From the NCBI RefSeq assembly GCF_021502675.1, contig NZ_JAKFHA010000031.1, positions 5,429-69,428 on the forward strand: 64,000 nt of DNA, written 5' to 3'. Positions 1 through 6,369 of the stretch are shown piece by piece. The notes under the pieces were generated by a model that did not search any database, had not been told where the DNA came from, and saw only the letters and a list, made by a program, of their open reading frames with translations. This DNA is from Yinghuangia soli. Lineage in GTDB: Bacteria; Actinomycetota; Actinomycetes; Streptomycetales; Streptomycetaceae. Position numbers and translations under genes: made by a program. Every line of letters begins with the position of its first letter. Position 1 is the first letter of the stretch.

Positions 1-98
1 TCGGCGCCCCACCAACACAAACCCCCCGGGGCGGGGGGGGGGCCCCCCCCCACCCCCCCCCCCCCCCCGCGGCCGGGACAAGAGCCGGTTTCGGCGGG
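1..98. repeat. homopolymer G/C tracts
   Basis: A non-coding stretch with a run of ten G (33-42) followed by nine C, one A and sixteen C (53-68). Such long runs are prone to length errors in sequencing and to slippage in vivo. No gene is visible here. A 17-C run of the same sort recurs at 40907. Confidence 0.8.
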
Positions 99-130
99 CC
101 TTCGGAGGGCCTCGAAGGTCCCCCCGAAGG
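99..130 (-). terminator. possible terminator of the peptide-export operon
   Basis: CCTTCGG at 99-105 pairs with CCGAAGG at 124-130, extended inward by GGG/CCC after one mismatch, with a 10-nt loop. It lies about 110 bp beyond the last gene of the leftward operon. There is no T-run, so this is a weak call. Confidence 0.35.
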
Positions 131-170
131 GCCTTCGCGGGACCGAGGCCGGGGCGTGCTCGGAGCTGCG

Positions 171-210
171 CGGGACTGCGCGGGACTGCGCGGGACTGCG
201 CGGGACTGCG
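171..210. repeat. tandem 10-bp repeat, four copies
   Basis: Four exact copies of cgggactgcg (171-180, 181-190, 191-200, 201-210) lie just downstream of the S26 peptidase stop codon. They are not part of any convincing reading frame. Confidence 0.9.
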
Positions 211-243
211 TTCAGGGGTGTTCGTAGCCGTGCCGGACTGCCG

Positions 244-747
244 TCAGCGGGTGCTCGGAGCCGGCTCCGCGTCGTCGCCGTCCGCCTCGGCGGCGGCCGC
301 GGCGGCACGGAGCCGGAAGAGGACCGTCCCGATGAGCTTGTCCTGCGGGCAGTAGCCCCACTGCTTGGAATCCCGCGAACCGGGCCGCTCGCCGAGCAGG
401 ATCAGCATGCCCGGCGGCACATGAGTCCCCGGGCAGCGCGTCGCCCAGGCCGGCACCGGATCCCCGGGGACCGCGACGATGCGCTTGACGTACCAGGAGT
501 CGGGAGAGCTGTCCGCCGGGGTCTTCCAGCCGAGTTCGCGGTCGGGGGCGACGACCACGGCCACCCGCCCTGCCGCGATCCGGCGGCGGCCGCGCAGCAT
601 GAGCAGCCGGTCGCCCGGCATCAGCACCGGCGACATGCTGTAGCCGCGTACGGTCACCGCGACCAGGCGGCCGCGGGCCAGCCCCAGGAGCGCCGCCAGG
701 ACGAGCAGGACGGCCAGGACACCCAGAAGTGCGGTCGCGATGCTCAT
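244..747 (-). CDS. S26 family signal peptidase (peptide maturation)
   Basis: A 167-residue membrane serine protease of the signal peptidase I family. An N-terminal hydrophobic segment (about 3-24) is followed by the catalytic Ser37 in the box GYSMSP and the general base Lys88 in YVKRIVAVPGD, so the Ser-Lys dyad is present. The ATG start overlaps the stop of the upstream ABC transporter gene as ATGA, which fixes the start and implies coupled translation. It is the last gene of the operon that begins at 4718. Because the operon encodes a small precursor with an AxA site, the likely substrate is that peptide rather than general Sec cargo. That substrate is inferred; the protease family is clear. 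Confidence 0.88.
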   Translation of the reverse strand: MSIATALLGVLAVLLVLAALLGLARGRLVAVTVRGYSMSPVLMPGDRLLMLRGRRRIAAGRVAVVVAPDRELGWKTPADSSPDSWYVKRIVAVPGDPVPAWATRCPGTHVPPGMLILLGERPGSRDSKQWGYCPQDKLIGTVLFRLRAAAAAAEADGDDAEPAPSTR

Positions 748-2672
748 CGGACGGCCTCCTCGTACCCCTCGGACTGCGCGTAGCCCTCCGCCTGCAGGCG
801 GAACAACTCGGCATAGGACCCGCCCGCGGCCATCAGTTCGTCGTGCGTGCCGGACTCCCGGACGACCCCGTCCGCGATGACGACGATGCTGTCCGCGGCG
901 CGCACGCTGTTGAGCCGGTGCGAGACCAGGATGCTCGTCGCACCGCGGCGCAACTCGGCGAGCCGGTCGTGGACGTGGCGCTCGGCCACGGCGTCCAGAC
1001 CCGTGCTCGGCTCGTCCAGGATCATCAGGTCGCGCCCGGACCGCATCAGCGCCCGGGCGAGCGCGACGCGCTGCCACTGGCCGCCGGACAGCTGGACGCC
1101 CGAACCCCCGGGATCGTCGGGGTCGTCGAGGTCGTCCGGGAAGAACATCCGGCTCAGCATGGTGTCGTAGCCGCGCGGCAGGCCCGCCAGCACGTCGTGC
1201 ACGTCCGCATCGGCCGCGGCGGCGCGGATACGCTCATGGTCGTCGAACGCGTCCAGGTCGCCCAGGCCGATGTTCTCCGCGGCGGACAGGTCGTACTCCA
1301 TCGGGTCCTGGAACACCACGCTGATGCGCTGCCGCAGCTCGTCGGCGGGGATGTCGCGCAGGTCCACGCCGTCCCAGGTGATGCTGCCGCGCTGCGGGTC
1401 GTACAGCCGGCACACCAGTTTCACCAGCGTGCTCTTGCCCGCCCCGTTCAGGCCCACGACCGCCAGGCTGCCGCCGTGCGGGACGGCCAGGTCGACGCCG
1501 CGCAGGATCCACGGCCCGTCCTCGGAGTACCGGAACCACACGTCCCGCAGCTCCAGTCCGCGCGCCAGCGGCGGCGGGGCCACCGGCGCGGCCGGGGCCG
1601 GCAGGTCGTCCCGGACCTGCGTCACGTGCACGTAGTGGCCGAACATCAGGGCCGTCTGGTGCCCCTGCGCGATGCACCCGACCAGCGCCGCCAGCGCCGC
1701 CTGCATCCCGGCGAGCGCCGCCACCAGCAGCGACACGTCGCCCGCACTAAGCGCACCGGACGCGGCCTTGTGCACGGCCCAGACCAGCGCACCGGTCGAC
1801 ACGAGGGCGCCCAGCACCGCCAGGCCCGTCTCGTACACCGCGAGCCGCCGGTCGAGCTGCTCCTCCTGCCGGTTGATGCCGTCGAGGTCGCTGCGCATGC
1901 GCCGGGCGAAGTAGCCGCCCAGGCCGTACAGCCGGATCTCCTTCGCGGCCTGGGGATCGGTCAGGATCCCGCGGTAGAAGATCTGCCGCCGCGCCAGGCT
2001 GCTGGTCCGCCAGAACATGTCGGCGCGGTGGCGGCTGTTGGCCAACTGCGCGAACAGCGCCGGGACGGCCGCGGCGACCAGGATCCCGGTCAGCACCGGG
2101 CTGATCAGCAGCAGACTGCCCAGGAACCCGGCCAGCGTCAGCACGTTCTGCGCGCACTGCAGGACTGCGCCGACCAGCCGCTCGGCGCCCTGCGCGCTCT
2201 GGATGCCGAGCTGCACGCGGTTCTGGAACGCGGGCTGTTCGAGCTTCGACAGGCCGCTGAGCCGGTTCACCGCGGTGAGCAGCTCGGTCTGCGCCTGCGT
2301 CGAGGTGGCCCGGCGGATGCGGCCGTCGGCGTACGCGGAGACGGCCGCGCTCGCCGCCAGCAGCACGGTCAGCAGGCCGATGCCGGCCGCGGCCCAGGTC
2401 AGGTCCGCGGTACGGAACCCGCCGTCGGCGAGGTTGTCGACCACGTACTTGAGCAGCCAGGACGCCGCGACCGGGGCGATGCCCGCGATCAGCACGGTCG
2501 CGATGCGGACGGCGAGCGCGCCCGGGCAGGCGCGTACCGTCAGGGCCAGCGCGGCGGTGAGGCCGCGGGCGAACTCCTTTGTGCGGTCCGCGAGTTTCAC
2601 TTTGCCCGTGCCACGCCCGTCAGTGCCGCGCCCGCCGGTGCCGCGGCGGCTCGTGCCGCGTCCTGTGCTCAT
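744..2672 (-). CDS. ABC exporter, fused membrane and ATPase domains
   Basis: A 642-residue half-transporter of the exporter type. The membrane domain (about 40-340) precedes the ATPase domain, which has Walker A GLNGAGKST, signature LSGGQWQRVALARAL and Walker B LMILDEPSTGLD. There is no C39 peptidase domain in front, consistent with a separate protease encoded by the next gene. The first 22 residues are a low-complexity RGT/Gly repeat encoded by an approximately 15-bp DNA repeat. An internal GTG near 2603 is an alternative start, but the ATGA overlap with the preceding redoxin gene favours 2672. It probably exports the 59-residue cysteine-rich peptide of the same operon. Confidence 0.9.
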   Translation of the reverse strand: MSTGRGTSRRGTGGRGTDGRGTGKVKLADRTKEFARGLTAALALTVRACPGALAVRIATVLIAGIAPVAASWLLKYVVDNLADGGFRTADLTWAAAGIGLLTVLLAASAAVSAYADGRIRRATSTQAQTELLTAVNRLSGLSKLEQPAFQNRVQLGIQSAQGAERLVGAVLQCAQNVLTLAGFLGSLLLISPVLTGILVAAAVPALFAQLANSRHRADMFWRTSSLARRQIFYRGILTDPQAAKEIRLYGLGGYFARRMRSDLDGINRQEEQLDRRLAVYETGLAVLGALVSTGALVWAVHKAASGALSAGDVSLLVAALAGMQAALAALVGCIAQGHQTALMFGHYVHVTQVRDDLPAPAAPVAPPPLARGLELRDVWFRYSEDGPWILRGVDLAVPHGGSLAVVGLNGAGKSTLVKLVCRLYDPQRGSITWDGVDLRDIPADELRQRISVVFQDPMEYDLSAAENIGLGDLDAFDDHERIRAAAADADVHDVLAGLPRGYDTMLSRMFFPDDLDDPDDPGGSGVQLSGGQWQRVALARALMRSGRDLMILDEPSTGLDAVAERHVHDRLAELRRGATSILVSHRLNSVRAADSIVVIADGVVRESGTHDELMAAGGSYAELFRLQAEGYAQSEGYEEAVR

Positions 2673-3232
2673 ACGGTGAGCAGGTTCAGGGCGGGCAGCG
2701 AGCCCTGGCCGATGCCCGTCTCGGTGATGGTCCCGTCCGCGCGGACGAGCACGAAGCTGGGGTGGTAGCGGACCCCGAACGCGGTCGCCACGGGACCGCC
2801 GGACGGCTCGACGGCGGTCAGCCCGGTGAGCGGCGTGACCGCTTCCAGGAGCGGGCCGGCCTCGTCCTCGGCCCCGTTGACGATGGCGACCAGGCGCGCT
2901 CCGGACGGGGTGTTCGCCGCGGCCCAGCGCTCGATCTCCGGGAGGCTGTCGCGCGTCGGACCGCACGCGGGGCGCAGGAAGCAGATGAGTGCGGGCTGCC
3001 CGTCGAGCGCCGACTCGGTGGCCTCGCCTTCGGGCGTGTGCAGTGTGAAGGCGGGCAGTCGCTCGCCCTCCGCGACGGCGAGGGTCGGCTCGTCCTCGGC
3101 GGGGACCGCGTTGCGGGGCCGCGGCGGAGCGGTGATCACGGCCTGCCAGGCCTTGACCACCTTGGTGGTGAGCAGGGCGTTGACGAGGGTGGCGGCGACC
3201 ATGAGGGCGAGGCCGGCGACGGCGTAGGTCAC
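2669..3232 (-). CDS. TlpA/MauD-like redoxin with CGPT active site
   Basis: A 187-residue membrane-anchored thioredoxin-fold protein. One N-terminal membrane segment (about 4-22) leads into a redoxin domain. The active-site position reads CGPT (90-93), so the resolving cysteine of CxxC is replaced by Thr. A second cysteine, Cys84, sits five residues earlier (CFLRPAC). The cis-Pro loop is present (YHPSFVLV). A one-cysteine redoxin cannot run a normal CxxC cycle, so it may trap mixed disulfides, act as an isomerase, or use Cys84. It lies 15 bp after the mauE-like gene and overlaps the ABC gene by 4 bp. MauD of the methylamine dehydrogenase system is the nearest characterised analogue I can name. 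Confidence 0.82.
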   Translation of the reverse strand: MTYAVAGLALMVAATLVNALLTTKVVKAWQAVITAPPRPRNAVPAEDEPTLAVAEGERLPAFTLHTPEGEATESALDGQPALICFLRPACGPTRDSLPEIERWAAANTPSGARLVAIVNGAEDEAGPLLEAVTPLTGLTAVEPSGGPVATAFGVRYHPSFVLVRADGTITETGIGQGSLPALNLLTV

Positions 3233-3247
3233 TTCGGGGGCGTCCTT

Positions 3248-3781
3248 TCAGCGTCGGCCGGCACGGGCCGAGAAGAAGAAGGCGAGGTCGTCGGTGAAGA
3301 CCGCGAGCGCGGTCAGGTAGGCGGCAGCGCCGACCGCGAGCGCGACCGCGGGCGCCTCGAGGGACGTGGACGTCCCGTCGGCCAGGGCGACCGCGCCGCC
3401 GACCGCGGCCAGCGCGGTGAGCGCCACGTTGCGGGCCACATGCCACGGGCCCATCGGCACCGAGGTCCGGCTGCCGAAGCACGCGCAGCCGACCGAGCTG
3501 CCGCGGCGCATGGTGGCCACCGCGACGGCGGTGAACGCGGCGCACAGCACCGCTGCCAGGGCCAGGCCGAGGCCCACCGTCCAAGGGAGGAGCAGGAGGA
3601 CGGCGGCGAGGAGTTCGGCGGCCGGCACCAGGACGGCGAGTGCGGGGCGCGCGGCGGCGGGCAGGAACGGGAAGTCGCGCAGCGCCTCGGCGAATTGGTC
3701 GCGGTCGCGAAGCTTGGCGACGCCGGCCACGGCCAGCACGCAGATCAGCGTCAGGCGGCAGATGAGCAGCAGGTCGGACAA
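3248..3781 (-). CDS. MauE/DoxX-type membrane redox protein
   Basis: A 177-residue protein with about four membrane segments and the motif CACFG (Cys99, Cys101), typical of MauE-like redox proteins that work with thioredoxin-fold partners in periplasmic or extracytoplasmic disulfide chemistry. A longer frame begins at an ATG at 3877, but that would place the start in the loop of a 14-bp hairpin and add a proline-rich tail. The TTG at 3781 has GGAG five bases upstream and gives the normal family length. Its role here is probably passing electrons out of disulfides formed in the peptide. The family call is firm; the start is moderately sure. Confidence 0.85.
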   Translation of the reverse strand: MSDLLLICRLTLICVLAVAGVAKLRDRDQFAEALRDFPFLPAAARPALAVLVPAAELLAAVLLLLPWTVGLGLALAAVLCAAFTAVAVATMRRGSSVGCACFGSRTSVPMGPWHVARNVALTALAAVGGAVALADGTSTSLEAPAVALAVGAAAYLTALAVFTDDLAFFFSARAGRR

Positions 3782-3861
3782 CGTGACTCCGGGGAATCGG
3801 CACGGGAGCGGCGCGGGGGGAGGGAGAGGAGCAGGCGACGGGGCACGGCACGGGGGAAGGA

Positions 3862-3891
3862 ACGGGGCGGGCCGCAAGCGGCCCGCCCCGT
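3862..3891 (-). terminator. hairpin between peptide gene and mauE-like gene
   Basis: A perfect 14-bp stem (3862-3875 with 3878-3891, core cggggcgggccgc) lies 5 bp after the peptide stop codon. With no T-run it probably works as an attenuator or mRNA 3'-end stabiliser. It would let the precursor be made in excess over the export and redox proteins, an arrangement common in peptide operons. Confidence 0.75.
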
Positions 3892-3896
3892 GTGTG

Positions 3897-4076
3897 TCAG
3901 CAGTAGCTCCAGCTACCGCACGACACCGTGCAGCGGGGAGTGTCGCAACAACGGCGGCACCGCTGGCCGCTGGTGCTCCACTCGGTCCAGCAGTCCGGCG
4001 GGCAGCCTGCCTCGGCGTCGGCCTTGGGCAGAATGCGTTCGATCATGCGGCTGGCACCGGCCTTGAGCGTGCGCAT
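3897..4076 (-). CDS. cysteine-rich secreted peptide precursor (59 aa)
   Basis: Start ATG at 4076 follows a strong AGAGGAG site. Residues 1-23 form a charged amphipathic leader without the hydrophobic core of a Sec signal, ending in A-E-A (21-23). Residues 24-59 are a cysteine-rich core with eight Cys at 25, 29, 40, 43, 44, 49, 53 and 59, three Trp and a C-terminal SWSYC. Eight Cys could form four disulfides. Flanking genes encode two redoxins, a MauE-like protein, an ABC exporter and an S26 protease. The inferred path is export by the ABC protein, cleavage after Ala23, and folding by the redox proteins. I do not recognise a described peptide family; a miniature relative of MauA-like disulfide-rich subunits is one alternative. 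Confidence 0.85.
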   Translation of the reverse strand: MRTLKAGASRMIERILPKADAEAGCPPDCWTEWSTSGQRCRRCCDTPRCTVSCGSWSYC

Positions 4077-4094
4077 GGTTCTCCTCTCGAAGTG

Positions 4095-4115
4095 GGTCGA
4101 CGGGTCGCGTCGACC
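4095..4115 (-). promoter_or_regulatory. hairpin in leader of peptide gene
   Basis: GGTCGAC (4095-4101) pairs with GTCGACC (4109-4115) around a 7-nt loop, between the first redoxin gene and the peptide start. Together with the hairpin after the peptide gene it brackets the peptide coding segment, suggesting processing or stabilisation of that mRNA piece. Confidence 0.55.
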
Positions 4116-4181
4116 GGTGAGACGAACTGTGCGATTTCCTTCTTTCCTCGGTGCGGCCGCGGATGGCGGACGCACCGGGGT

Positions 4182-4718
4182 TCAGTGGGCCGCCGGTGCG
4201 GGGCGGCGGCGTTCGGCGGCGGGGCGGTCCGGGATCACGCCGCGCCGGTAGGAAAGGATCGTGGGGTAGCCGGGCACGCGCAGCGCCTGGAAGAGCGGCT
4301 GGGCCTCGGGCGCGGGGACGATCTCGTCCGCGGGGCCGACGAGTTTGCCGATCAGCGTGCTCTCGCCGGTGTCCTCGCCCATCACCAGGGCCATGACCTT
4401 GCCTCCGGACTCCCGTGTGCGGTCGGCGCGTTCGGCGAATTCCGGGATCCTGTCGGCACAGGACGGGCAGTCGTGCGAGAAGACGCCAAGCAGCAGCTCG
4501 CCGGAGCGGTAGTCGTTGCGGGTCAGGGTCCGGCCGCTGAGCGCGGTGACGGTGAACTCCGGCAGCTTGTCGCCCGGTTGCGGGCCCTGTGCGGCGAAGT
4601 CCTCGCGCCGCCGCACGGCCTCCAGCTCCTGCCAGCGGCGCAGGATGACCAGGAGCAGTCCGAGGTTCAGCAGGGCGATGGTCCCGACGAGAACCAAACA
4701 GGCAATGACGTAAGGCAA
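4182..4718 (-). CDS. TlpA/MauD-like redoxin with CPSC active site
   Basis: A 178-residue membrane-anchored thiol-disulfide protein and first gene of the operon. The TTG start at 4718 has AGGGGGT about seven bases upstream. A membrane segment (about 4-26) precedes a redoxin domain with an intact C84-P-S-C87 and a cis-Pro loop GYPTILSY. A longer frame to 4895 adds a poorly supported tail. It differs from the second redoxin of the operon, which has only one active-site cysteine, so the two may divide oxidation and isomerisation. The substrate is presumably the eight-cysteine peptide encoded immediately downstream. Confidence 0.82.
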   Translation of the reverse strand: MPYVIACLVLVGTIALLNLGLLLVILRRWQELEAVRRREDFAAQGPQPGDKLPEFTVTALSGRTLTRNDYRSGELLLGVFSHDCPSCADRIPEFAERADRTRESGGKVMALVMGEDTGESTLIGKLVGPADEIVPAPEAQPLFQALRVPGYPTILSYRRGVIPDRPAAERRRPAPAAH

Positions 4719-4970: not shown

Positions 4971-5214
4971 CTGCTTGTTTTCGCAGGCAATCGGTTGGGC
5001 AGGATCCGCCATTGGCGCGCACGTGCAGCTCGGTGCTCATGGGTGCCGGGATGCCGAGGCGGGGTCCCGGTGGCGACCGGAATGGCAGCGATTCCACCAA
5101 GGACTGTTCTGATATCGGACAGTAGGGTCCGGAAAGTGAACGGCCGGCGACCGGGACGACTGACGGGGAGCCCGGAGCGTGTGCGACGCCACCGGTGCCG
5201 GTGTGGCTTCGCAC

Positions 5215-5283
5215 GGCCTTCGCATCGCCTTGGCATCGCGTTCGCATTGCCTGCGCATGGCCTTCGTATGGCCGCGCTGGCAT
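5215..5283. repeat. degenerate 11-bp tandem repeats upstream of araC-type gene
   Basis: Five consecutive 11-bp units ending in cat or tat (ggccttcgcat, cgccttggcat, cgcgttcgcat, tgcctgcgcat, ggccttcgtat) are followed by a 14-bp unit to 5283. One unit is about one helical turn, so every copy faces the same side of the DNA. It sits 10 bp before the proposed start codon. Confidence 0.8.
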
Positions 5284-5292
5284 CATCGCGGG

Positions 5293-6369
5293 ATGCGTTC
5301 AACCGGTGCGGCACCCGGATCGGGCGGCGGGGGCGCGGGGCCGGTCGCCGAAGTGACCACCAGCATCGTTCCCGAGGCGGAGCGGTTCGGCTGGTGGACC
5401 GACATGGTCGCGGACCAGGTCATGCCGGTGTCCGTCCGCAGCCCGCACGCCGCGGTGTTCCGCGGCCGCGCGGCCGTCGTGGACACCCCGCGCGCCCAGG
5501 TCGCGGCGTTCGGCTTCTCGCCCATGACGGCCCGCCGGTCGGCGGTGCAGATCCGCCGCCACGACCCCGAGTGCTACTTCCTGGTCCTGGTACGCGACAC
5601 CCCCATCCGGCTCGAACAAGCGCGCAGCACCGCCTTCCTGGAGGCCGGCGACCTGGCGCTCTTCTCCACCTCGCAGCCCCTGGACTGCGACTTCCTCGAC
5701 GCCGGCCGGCAGACCCGGCTCACGCTGATCCGGCTGCCCCGCCACGCCCTCCCGCTGGACGGCGACCGCGCCGACCGCCTGCTCGCCCGGCCGATCAGCG
5801 GCCGCACCGGCGCCGCACGGCTGCTCGGCGGCTACCTCACCGGACTGCCCGACGCGGCGCGCACCTCGGACCCGGGCACCCTCGAACGGCTAGGCGACAT
5901 CGGCGTGGACCTGGCCGCGACGGTGCTCGCCGCGCAGCTGGGCGACGACACGGCAGTGCCGGGCGCGACGCGGAAGGCCGTGCTGCTGGCCCGCGTCCGG
6001 GCGTTCATCGAACGCCACCTCGGCGAGCCCGGGCTGAACCCCGCGGCGATCGCCGCGCACCACCACATCTCGGTCCGTGCGCTGCACGAACTCTTCCGCG
6101 GGGAGCCGGAGTCCGTGGCCGCGTCCATCCGTACCCGGCGGCTGGCGCGCTGCCGCGCGGACCTCACCGACAGCGCACTGCGGGACCGCACGATCGCCGA
6201 GATCGCGGCCCGGTGGGCACTGCGCCCGGGGGACTTCAGCAGGGCGTTCCGAAGCGTGTACGGGATGACACCGGGAGAGCTGCGCGCCGTCCAGGGCCTG
6301 CAGGTTCTGCCGGGCGGCGGGGGAGGAGCCGGCGGTTCGGGCGGCGCGGCTGCGTACCGCGGGCACTGA
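5293..6369 (+). CDS. AraC-family transcriptional regulator
   Basis: A 358-residue regulator. The N-terminal part (about 25-200) looks like the sensing domain of AraC_binding_2-type regulators, and the C-terminal 100 residues carry the two helix-turn-helices of AraC, including IAEIAARWALRPGDFSRAFR and the ending YGMTPGELR. A Gly/Ala-rich tail closes the protein. The ATG at 5293 is chosen because the upstream extension runs through the 11-bp repeats; its ribosome site is weak. It is divergent from the cysteine-rich peptide operon and is the natural candidate to control it, though that is inference from position. Confidence 0.85.
   Translation: MRSTGAAPGSGGGGAGPVAEVTTSIVPEAERFGWWTDMVADQVMPVSVRSPHAAVFRGRAAVVDTPRAQVAAFGFSPMTARRSAVQIRRHDPECYFLVLVRDTPIRLEQARSTAFLEAGDLALFSTSQPLDCDFLDAGRQTRLTLIRLPRHALPLDGDRADRLLARPISGRTGAARLLGGYLTGLPDAARTSDPGTLERLGDIGVDLAATVLAAQLGDDTAVPGATRKAVLLARVRAFIERHLGEPGLNPAAIAAHHHISVRALHELFRGEPESVAASIRTRRLARCRADLTDSALRDRTIAEIAARWALRPGDFSRAFRSVYGMTPGELRAVQGLQVLPGGGGGAGGSGGAAAYRGH

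What the first reader, a model, noticed from the sequence alone, without database searches (positions are those of the whole stretch)
244..4718. Candidate undescribed disulfide-rich peptide system
Seen: six co-directional genes with 4-bp overlaps or short gaps encode an eight-Cys 59-residue peptide, a CPSC redoxin, a CGPT redoxin, a MauE-like protein with CACFG, an ABC exporter without a C39 domain and an S26 protease. Known: MauE/MauD support disulfide formation in methylamine dehydrogenase; S26 enzymes cut after AxA. Inferred: a dedicated oxidise-export-cleave line for one secreted peptide (bacteriocin, signal or redox cofactor protein). No RiPP modifying enzyme is present, so the chemistry may be disulfides only.
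Basis: partly seen in the sequence, partly recalled or inferred. Interest (0 to 1): 0.93.

Follow-up and report, generated by a model that had tools for sequence, protein, structure and literature searches.

The report
Actinomycete disulfide-rich peptide export cassette
A soil actinomycete carries a compact gene set that appears to make, oxidise, trim and export a small eight-cysteine peptide, and relatives of this set with ever-changing cysteine-rich peptides turn up in many actinomycetes, which points to a large and almost unstudied family of disulfide-bonded peptides.

Summary
Confirmed. All six genes are at the stated place and in the stated order. The peptide (59 aa, 8 Cys) matches no Pfam or NCBIfam family, but belongs to a large family with a shared leader (…DR(L/M)…P…AxA) and a hypervariable core. 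Searching with MauE instead of the peptide, 52 of 61 unseen high-scoring MauE loci carry such a gene; the same profile finds it in 0 of 20 lower-scoring loci. Cys number is even in 95 of 96 distinct peptides (61 of 61 outside the training set), so disulfide pairing is well supported. In the window's subfamily dN/dS is 0.08 for the leader, 0.78 for non-Cys core positions, 0 for Cys. The genome also holds an orphan second peptide, and a genome-unique hairpin follows the peptide gene.

'Undescribed' is too strong: decRiPPter (2020) listed three mauE + Cys-rich candidate families in silico. And charge patterns put the redoxins and the S26 protease on the cytoplasmic face, opposite to the four housekeeping signal peptidases of the same genome, so oxidation and cutting may precede or accompany export. 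Antimicrobial function is inferred (SARP regulators, plasmids, patchiness, hypervariability), not shown.

The parts
4182..4718 (-). Redoxin 1 (TlpA/AhpC-TSA type), N-terminal membrane segment, CPSC site
   Evidence: Pfam AhpC-TSA 3.3e-8; CP[SA]C in 11 of 11 window-type cassettes
3897..4076 (-). Precursor peptide, 59 aa: 23-aa leader ending AEA, 36-aa core with 8 Cys
   Evidence: A3 alignment of 35 peptides: invariant M1, P17, A21, A23, C44; no library family
3863..3890 (-). GC-rich stem-loop between the peptide gene and mauE (candidate differential expression element)
   Evidence: fold z = -3.07 for the surrounding 66 nt; same hairpin in 11 of 11 window-type cassettes; one place in the genome with up to 2 mismatches; position
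3248..3781 (-). MauE/DoxX-type membrane protein with CACFG
   Evidence: Pfam MauE 1.1e-31; CxCFG in 53 of 56 relatives; CxCFG loop net positive
2669..3232 (-). Redoxin 2, membrane segment, single-cysteine CGPT site
   Evidence: AhpC-TSA 2.2e-5, below curated cut-off; CGP[TS] in 11 of 11 window-type cassettes
744..2672 (-). ABC exporter (membrane + ATPase), no C39 peptidase domain found
   Evidence: ABC_tran 1.6e-28, ABC_membrane 5.7e-5 (under cut-off); no C39 model among matches up to E 1
244..747 (-). S26 signal-peptidase-like protease, Ser (SMSP) and Lys (VKR) present
   Evidence: Pfam 1.9e-17, TIGR02227 above cut-off; Ser/Lys motif in 52 of 52 relatives
5179..6369 (+). AraC-family regulator ORF, divergent neighbour (possible local regulator; not shared by the other window-type loci)
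   Evidence: Pfam AraC_binding_2 1.2e-13, HTH_18 5.9e-11; not among ORFs shared by 3 or more other window-type loci

Best explanation
A dedicated production cassette for a disulfide-bonded peptide of about 36 residues, one of a large, fast-diversifying actinomycete family. Steps: the ribosome makes a precursor with a conserved leader and a Cys-rich core (shown at sequence level). MauE and the CxxC redoxin, with the one-cysteine second redoxin as a likely shuffling partner, pair all cysteines (pairing well supported by parity; enzyme roles inferred). The S26 protease cuts after AxA and the C39-less ABC exporter moves the peptide out; the two genes overlap by 4 bp here and together would replace the C39-ABC fusion of classical bacteriocin exporters (inferred). 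Charge patterns put redoxin and protease active sites on the inner face, so oxidation and cutting probably happen at the membrane's cytoplasmic side, before or during export (inferred, about 55%). The hairpin after the peptide gene likely gives more peptide than machinery (inferred). The product most likely serves in competition (bacteriocin or other toxin-like peptide, about 55%) rather than signalling (about 20%). The confidence below is for the cassette making an exported, cut, disulfide-bonded peptide, whichever side the enzymes face and whatever the target.
For: Cassette beside the peptide in 10 of 11 family loci fetched; at least two cassette genes in 24 of 25 class loci fetched. From the MauE side: peptide in 12 of 14 and 40 of 47 unseen loci; leader profile 0 of 20 in lower-scoring MauE loci. 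Cys even in 95 of 96, in 61 of 61 not used to train the profile, and in 42 of 43 dissimilar cores, p = 5e-12 against one half; leader Cys 0 of 819 residues in A3. dN/dS leader 0.08, non-Cys core 0.78, Cys 0 in 12 window-type genes. AxA within residues 12-32 in 93 of 96; S26 Ser/Lys 52 of 52. Leaders do not look like Sec signals: highest 10-residue hydropathy mean 0.17-1.48 in 35. Topology: redoxins with a membrane segment have more K/R after than before it in 101 of 101; cassette S26 in 72 of 78, the reverse in four of four housekeeping S26. Orphan paralogue; tandem copies; SARP-type regulator beside 8 of 11 window-type cassettes; plasmid-borne copies.
Against: No expression, mass or activity data. 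No conserved immunity gene among ORFs of 80 aa or more in the 11 window-type loci (smaller genes would be missed), unusual for a bacteriocin. 9 of 61 unseen MauE loci gave no peptide: some at contig ends, some with MauE alone, but L136, L137, L212, L214 and L227 have ABC and still no peptide found. L043 has 7 Cys; four peptides have only 4. The net-positive MauE loop does not discriminate: 7 of 9 non-cassette MauE controls also have it. MauE/MauD are thought to serve an enzyme outside the cytoplasm (recalled), which sits badly with inner-face topology. The topology estimate rests on a simple hydropathy scan and nearest-start choice, which lowers the count before the segment.
Confidence: 0.72

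Rival explanations
1. Same cassette, conventional order: reduced precursor is exported first; redoxins, MauE and S26 act outside the membrane. (This is a variant of the best explanation, so the odds overlap.)
For: MauE/MauD are thought to serve an extracytoplasmic enzyme, S26 enzymes normally face outward, AxA is the usual S26 site (all recalled); PMC7794033 reports MauE as speculated to form disulfides. Control MauE proteins share the positive loop (7 of 9), so that sign alone does not show inner-face action.
Against: Charge flanks point inward for redoxins 101 of 101 and S26 72 of 78, against four of four housekeeping S26 of the same genome; 15 of 93 cassette S26 fall under the membrane-segment threshold, some only just.
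Confidence: 0.4
2. The product is a secreted signal or developmental peptide rather than a weapon.
For: No conserved immunity gene of 80 aa or more found; a regulator gene sits beside 8 of 11 window-type cassettes and beside the window's.
Against: Core hypervariable, non-Cys dN/dS 0.78, and no receptor-type gene conserved beside it; up to six MauE matches in one genome; plasmid carriage.
Confidence: 0.2
3. A metal-binding peptide (metallothionein or copper-trap type, like HvfX-associated bufferins).
For: MauE weakly resembles HvfX (E 0.0014, 18.9 bits against a cut-off of 80); Cys-rich product.
Against: Cys parity 95 of 96 fits pairing, not thiolate ligation; CxxC redoxins and a CxCFG protein are part of the set; HvfX cut-off not met.
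Confidence: 0.07
4. Chance neighbourhood: an unrelated small ORF beside ordinary redox and export genes.
For: The window is GC-rich (0.743 in bases 1-4000) and full of spurious frames.
Against: Leader, AxA and gene set recur in loci found from the MauE side; constrained leader and Cys.
Confidence: 0.01

Closest known systems
decRiPPter mauE candidate families (Kloosterman et al. 2020, PMC7794033; passages and section 7 read, S2 Table not read)
   Same: mauE (in one family also mauD) beside a predicted precursor of at least 8 Cys in Streptomyces, suggested as RiPP-like
   Different: There a list of in-silico candidates; leader motif, Cys parity, S26/ABC anatomy, topology and spread beyond Streptomyces are not in the parts read; whether the precursors are the same family was not tested
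Class II bacteriocins with disulfide helpers and C39-ABC exporters (pediocin, sublancin type; recalled)
   Same: Ribosomal, disulfide-bonded, ABC-exported, dedicated thiol oxidoreductase
   Different: Here AxA leader, no double-Gly, no C39 domain found, separate S26, MauE added
MauE/MauD of methylamine dehydrogenase maturation (recalled; role called speculative for MauE and unclear for MauD in PMC7794033)
   Same: MauE family plus a TlpA-like redoxin, disulfide substrate
   Different: Substrate is a small peptide with ABC export; no methylamine dehydrogenase gene among the six
NiSOD maturation protease SodX (recalled; TIGR02754 weak match)
   Same: S26-like protease with a private substrate, cytoplasmic cutting (recalled)
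   Different: Score below that family's cut-off (37.6 against 63.25)
QhpC cross-linking and export (recalled)
   Same: Modify inside, export by ABC, remove leader
   Different: Radical-SAM thioethers and a subtilisin-like protease there; neither among the six genes here

Membership tests
decRiPPter mauE + Cys-rich precursor candidates | mauE homologue next to a predicted precursor with at least 8 Cys | tested here: met
   MauE 1.1e-31 and 8-Cys peptide gene 115 bp apart
decRiPPter mauE + Cys-rich precursor candidates | precursor homologous to theirs | not tested
Class II bacteriocin with C39-ABC exporter | C39 peptidase domain on the ABC protein | tested here: not met
   no C39 model among Pfam matches up to E 1 for the window protein
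Class II bacteriocin with C39-ABC exporter | double-glycine leader | tested here: not met
   window leader ends ...ADAEA; AxA in 93 of 96 relatives
RiPP (leader/core precursor with modification) | conserved leader, variable core | tested here: met
   mean pairwise identity 0.475 leader, 0.337 core, 0.194 core without shared Cys, 35 peptides; dN/dS
RiPP (leader/core precursor with modification) | enzymatic modification of the core | not testable with these tools
   disulfides inferred from Cys parity only
HvfX/bufferin copper RiPP | HvfX family score above cut-off | tested here: not met
   18.9 bits against 80
Methylamine dehydrogenase gene set | MADH light chain (PF02975) in the genome | tested here: inconclusive
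   no match, but none of the 14 control genomes rang either
NiSOD maturation protease | TIGR02754 above cut-off | tested here: not met
   37.6 bits against 63.25
Type I signal peptidase (S26) | TIGR02227 above cut-off, Ser/Lys motif | tested here: met
   57.1 against 47; motifs
Type I signal peptidase (S26) | outward-facing catalytic domain | tested here: inconclusive
   charge pattern is the reverse of four housekeeping S26 of the genome; prediction only
Laterosporulin/defensin-like bacteriocin fold | shared fold | tested here: inconclusive
   Foldseek E 3.8, VIA Z 2.0, rmsd 3.5 over 37 residues, tied with unrelated folds

The most novel reading that the evidence does not exclude
A peptide line that folds and trims on the inside: MauE, CxxC redoxins and an inverted or membrane-less S26 protease all face the cytoplasm, oxidise a fully paired Cys core there, cut at AxA, and hand the folded peptide to a C39-less ABC exporter. 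This would be a disulfide-only RiPP class made by oxidative folding at the cytoplasmic face, with a signal peptidase doing the job of a C39 domain.
Probability: 0.4. Interest if true: 0.82.

Novelty: new variant of a known kind. Interest (0 to 1): 0.64.

Why it matters
The cassette gives a searchable signature (leader profile + MauE + S26 + C39-less ABC) for a family of disulfide-rich peptides whose MauE type occurs in 43 of 297 genomes of the window's family, including a cassette on plasmid pSCL4 of the laboratory species Streptomyces clavuligerus (that record is from the plasmid collection, not one of the 297). It opens a store of naturally varied, compact cystine scaffolds, and makes it directly testable whether bacteria can run oxidative folding and signal-peptidase cutting on the cytoplasmic side of the membrane.

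Tried and rejected
Peptide against Pfam and NCBIfam, alone and as 35 relatives: a few weak matches (best E-values 0.02 to 0.08, each to one or two members) to unrelated families, taken as chance. Structure of the window peptide (12-row alignment, mean pLDDT 73.4, pTM 0.45): core about 90 pLDDT, three strands, leader low; no significant PDB match (best E 1.6, Z up to 2.3; laterosporulin listed at Z 2.0, tied with unrelated rows). Phage collection: no MauE match at E 1e-5. Phylum-wide peptide search at E <= 1e-4 found only two known genomes of 296, so no spread outside the class is shown. PF02975 search uninformative because no control genome rang. Metal-binding and chance readings set aside as given under rivals. 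Of the 26 genomes, 15 with weak matches were not fetched then; at least one of these (G174) later proved real (L215), the rest are unknown. L044 and L090, which were fetched, had no cassette. Literature: ten searches of open PMC papers gave one relevant paper (PMC7794033); other hits were seen as listings only; most subscription papers are not in that library.
Full report
What is there. The window is G000:C25:5429-69428 of a 9.7 Mb genome. Its genus-mate G001 has a contig of the same length (271,399) carrying the same kind of peptide as a record of Yinghuangia seranimata, so the window is taken to be from Yinghuangia. The peptide reads MRTLKAGASRMIERILPKADAEA|GCPPDCWTEWSTSGQRCRRCCDTPRCTVSCGSWSYC; the bar is the inferred cut.

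It is a family. A DNA search of the own genome found a second peptide with the same leader, alone on contig C1 (L004 7854-8039, 61 aa, 8 Cys, 53% identical), which the cassette could serve in trans (inference). A two-row profile over 394 family genomes hit 26 at E <= 0.01. I fetched 11 places in 10 of the other 25 genomes: 10 carry peptide + MauE + ABC + S26, one (L044) has nothing. The weak matches in 15 genomes were not fetched then; one of them (G174) later proved real. A 14-row profile over 394 class genomes hit 21 genomes with 29 matches at E <= 1e-3. Four matches were known; the 25 others were fetched, and 24 carry at least two cassette genes; L090 has none. Three of the 24 (L078, L079, L082) have MauE and ABC but no S26 found and a leader without AxA. 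A 35-row profile over 296 phylum genomes found only two known genomes at E <= 1e-4.

Test from the other side. To avoid circularity I searched with MauE. In 246 class genomes: 53 matches in 35 genomes. Of the 29 matches at 128 bits or more, 15 were already known through the peptide; of the other 14, 12 have a leader-profile peptide (not L136, L137). In 297 family genomes: 56 matches in 43 genomes at E <= 1e-30. Nine were known; of 47 unseen, 40 have a peptide, 42 ABC, 43 S26, 44 a redoxin. The seven without a peptide are L194, L212, L214, L217, L220, L223 and L227: L194 and L217 show MauE alone, L223 is a 5.3-kb contig, but L212, L214 and L227 have the full machinery. Of the 24 matches under 128 bits, four lie in loci already listed (L078, L079, L082, L134); the other 20 loci (L140-L159) gave no leader-profile match at the same 12-bit threshold. 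A pattern check later showed that one of these 20, L144, has the L078 type of peptide, which the profile does not see, and L142 has two other Cys-rich frames. Loci from related genomes are not independent of each other.

Cysteines are paired. Among 96 distinct peptides the Cys number is even in 95 (4, 6, 8 or 10; the exception is L043 with 7). The profile was built on 35 of these, 34 even; the other 61 are even in 61 of 61. Keeping only peptides under 45% identical from residue 21 on, 42 of 43 are even (p = 5e-12 against one half). The L078-type peptides, L090 and the L142 frames were left out of that count. In A3 no Cys lies in the leaders (0 of 819 residues). AxA lies within residues 12-32 in 93 of 96. 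In the window's subfamily (12 genes) pooled dN/dS is 0.08 for the leader, 0.78 for non-Cys core positions and 0 for Cys. This is what a shared recognition leader with a diversifying disulfide core would show. AlphaFold gives the core about 90 pLDDT as three strands with no significant match in the PDB.

Machinery. S26 Ser and Lys motifs are present in 52 of 52, MauE CxCFG in 53 of 56 (not matched in L041, L042, L093). Most cassettes outside the window's type show one CxxC redoxin. The window type has two: CP[SA]C upstream of the peptide and, next to MauE, a one-cysteine CGP[TS] form (11 of 11 each), possibly a division of labour between oxidation and shuffling (inference). A stem-loop of 11 or more pairs follows the last peptide gene in 11 of 11 window-type cassettes; in the tandem case (L037) it is absent between the two copies. 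With up to two mismatches it occurs at one place in the genome. It is placed to favour peptide over machinery transcripts (inference).

Which side of the membrane. Hydropathy and charge were examined. Of 106 redoxins, 101 have an N-terminal membrane segment; K/R after it exceed K/R before it in 101 of 101. Of 93 S26 proteins, 78 reach the segment threshold and 72 of these have more K/R after than before (2 fewer, 4 equal); 15 fall short, some only just. In four housekeeping S26 proteins of this genome, stretches picked by hand have 4-10 K/R before the segment and 0-1 after. The MauE loop with CxCFG is net positive in 95 of 95 cassette proteins, but also in 7 of 9 non-cassette controls, so it does not discriminate. 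By the positive-inside rule the redoxins and S26 face the cytoplasm. The caveats are a simple scan, nearest-start choice (which lowers the before-count; for the window and the annotated plasmid redoxins the starts also show no K or R before the segment) and contrary precedent for MauE/MauD (recalled). I give inner-face action about 55%.

Function. In 8 of 11 window-type cassettes a divergent gene homologous to the one annotated AfsR/SARP in L168 lies next to the cassette; SARPs commonly control antibiotic clusters (recalled). The window itself has an AraC regulator there instead. ABC homologues occur in 30 plasmid-collection records, 16 of them S. clavuligerus and some of chromosome size. I opened four of the 30, all with the cassette: Streptomyces NBC_01727, S. 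clavuligerus pSCL4 with two tandem peptides, a 111-kb S. atratus plasmid and NBC_00053. The peptide genes there are annotated 'hypothetical protein'. Patchy occurrence, several MauE matches in one genome, tandem and orphan copies and hypervariable cores fit a weapon better than a signal. The lack of a conserved immunity gene (only ORFs of 80 aa or more compared) argues for caution, or for targets unlike the producer.

Prior work. Ten searches found one paper on point, PMC7794033 (passages and section 7 read): among its 42 candidate families three have mauE, one also mauD, with precursors of at least 8 Cys, in three named Streptomyces; no experiment on them is reported in what I read. The finding is therefore not the first notice of mauE beside Cys-rich precursors. 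The leader/AxA rule, Cys parity, S26/ABC anatomy, hairpin, topology and spread over other actinomycete families were not in those sections.

Verdict. Real, conserved and, as far as the searches show, little studied: a new variant of the known kind 'exported disulfide-bonded ribosomal peptide with dedicated helpers'.

Noticed in passing
L078:7536-7805, L079:7749-7898, L082:7483-7632, L144: Relatives in another family (f19) keep a window-like core (CPPDC...RRxCC..PDC...C..W....C) and MauE + ABC, but have a different leader without AxA and no S26 found; L078, L079 and L082 have an extra ABC-type ORF: same kind of core, apparently different processing.
   Followed up: partly
L142:9839-10507: Two tandem Cys-rich frames (82 and 83 aa, MNELFAF.../MEKLFAF..., 6 Cys each) near MauE and ABC, with an unrelated leader: perhaps another MauE-served peptide family.
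   Followed up: no
L004:7854-8039: Orphan second peptide gene of the same genome with no export or redox genes of the cassette beside it, between ORFs that read like XRE-type and LysR-type regulators (by eye).
   Followed up: partly
L133:6453-7027; L129:5431-10385; L037:9169-9575: Multiple copies: three tandem peptides (L133), two peptides and two S26 genes (L129), two tandem peptides with the hairpin only after the second (L037).
   Followed up: partly
L083:2952-3248: A 99-aa relative with a long Gly/Pro-rich C-terminal stretch within the core.
   Followed up: no
window 1-60 and L003 about 5420: A short run of N lies just before the window start and the first bases are a G/C homopolymer-rich tract, so the contig may be weakly joined just downstream of the S26 gene.
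   Followed up: no
L136, L137, L212, L214, L227: High-scoring MauE loci with ABC (and S26 and/or a redoxin) but no recognised Cys-rich peptide.
   Followed up: partly
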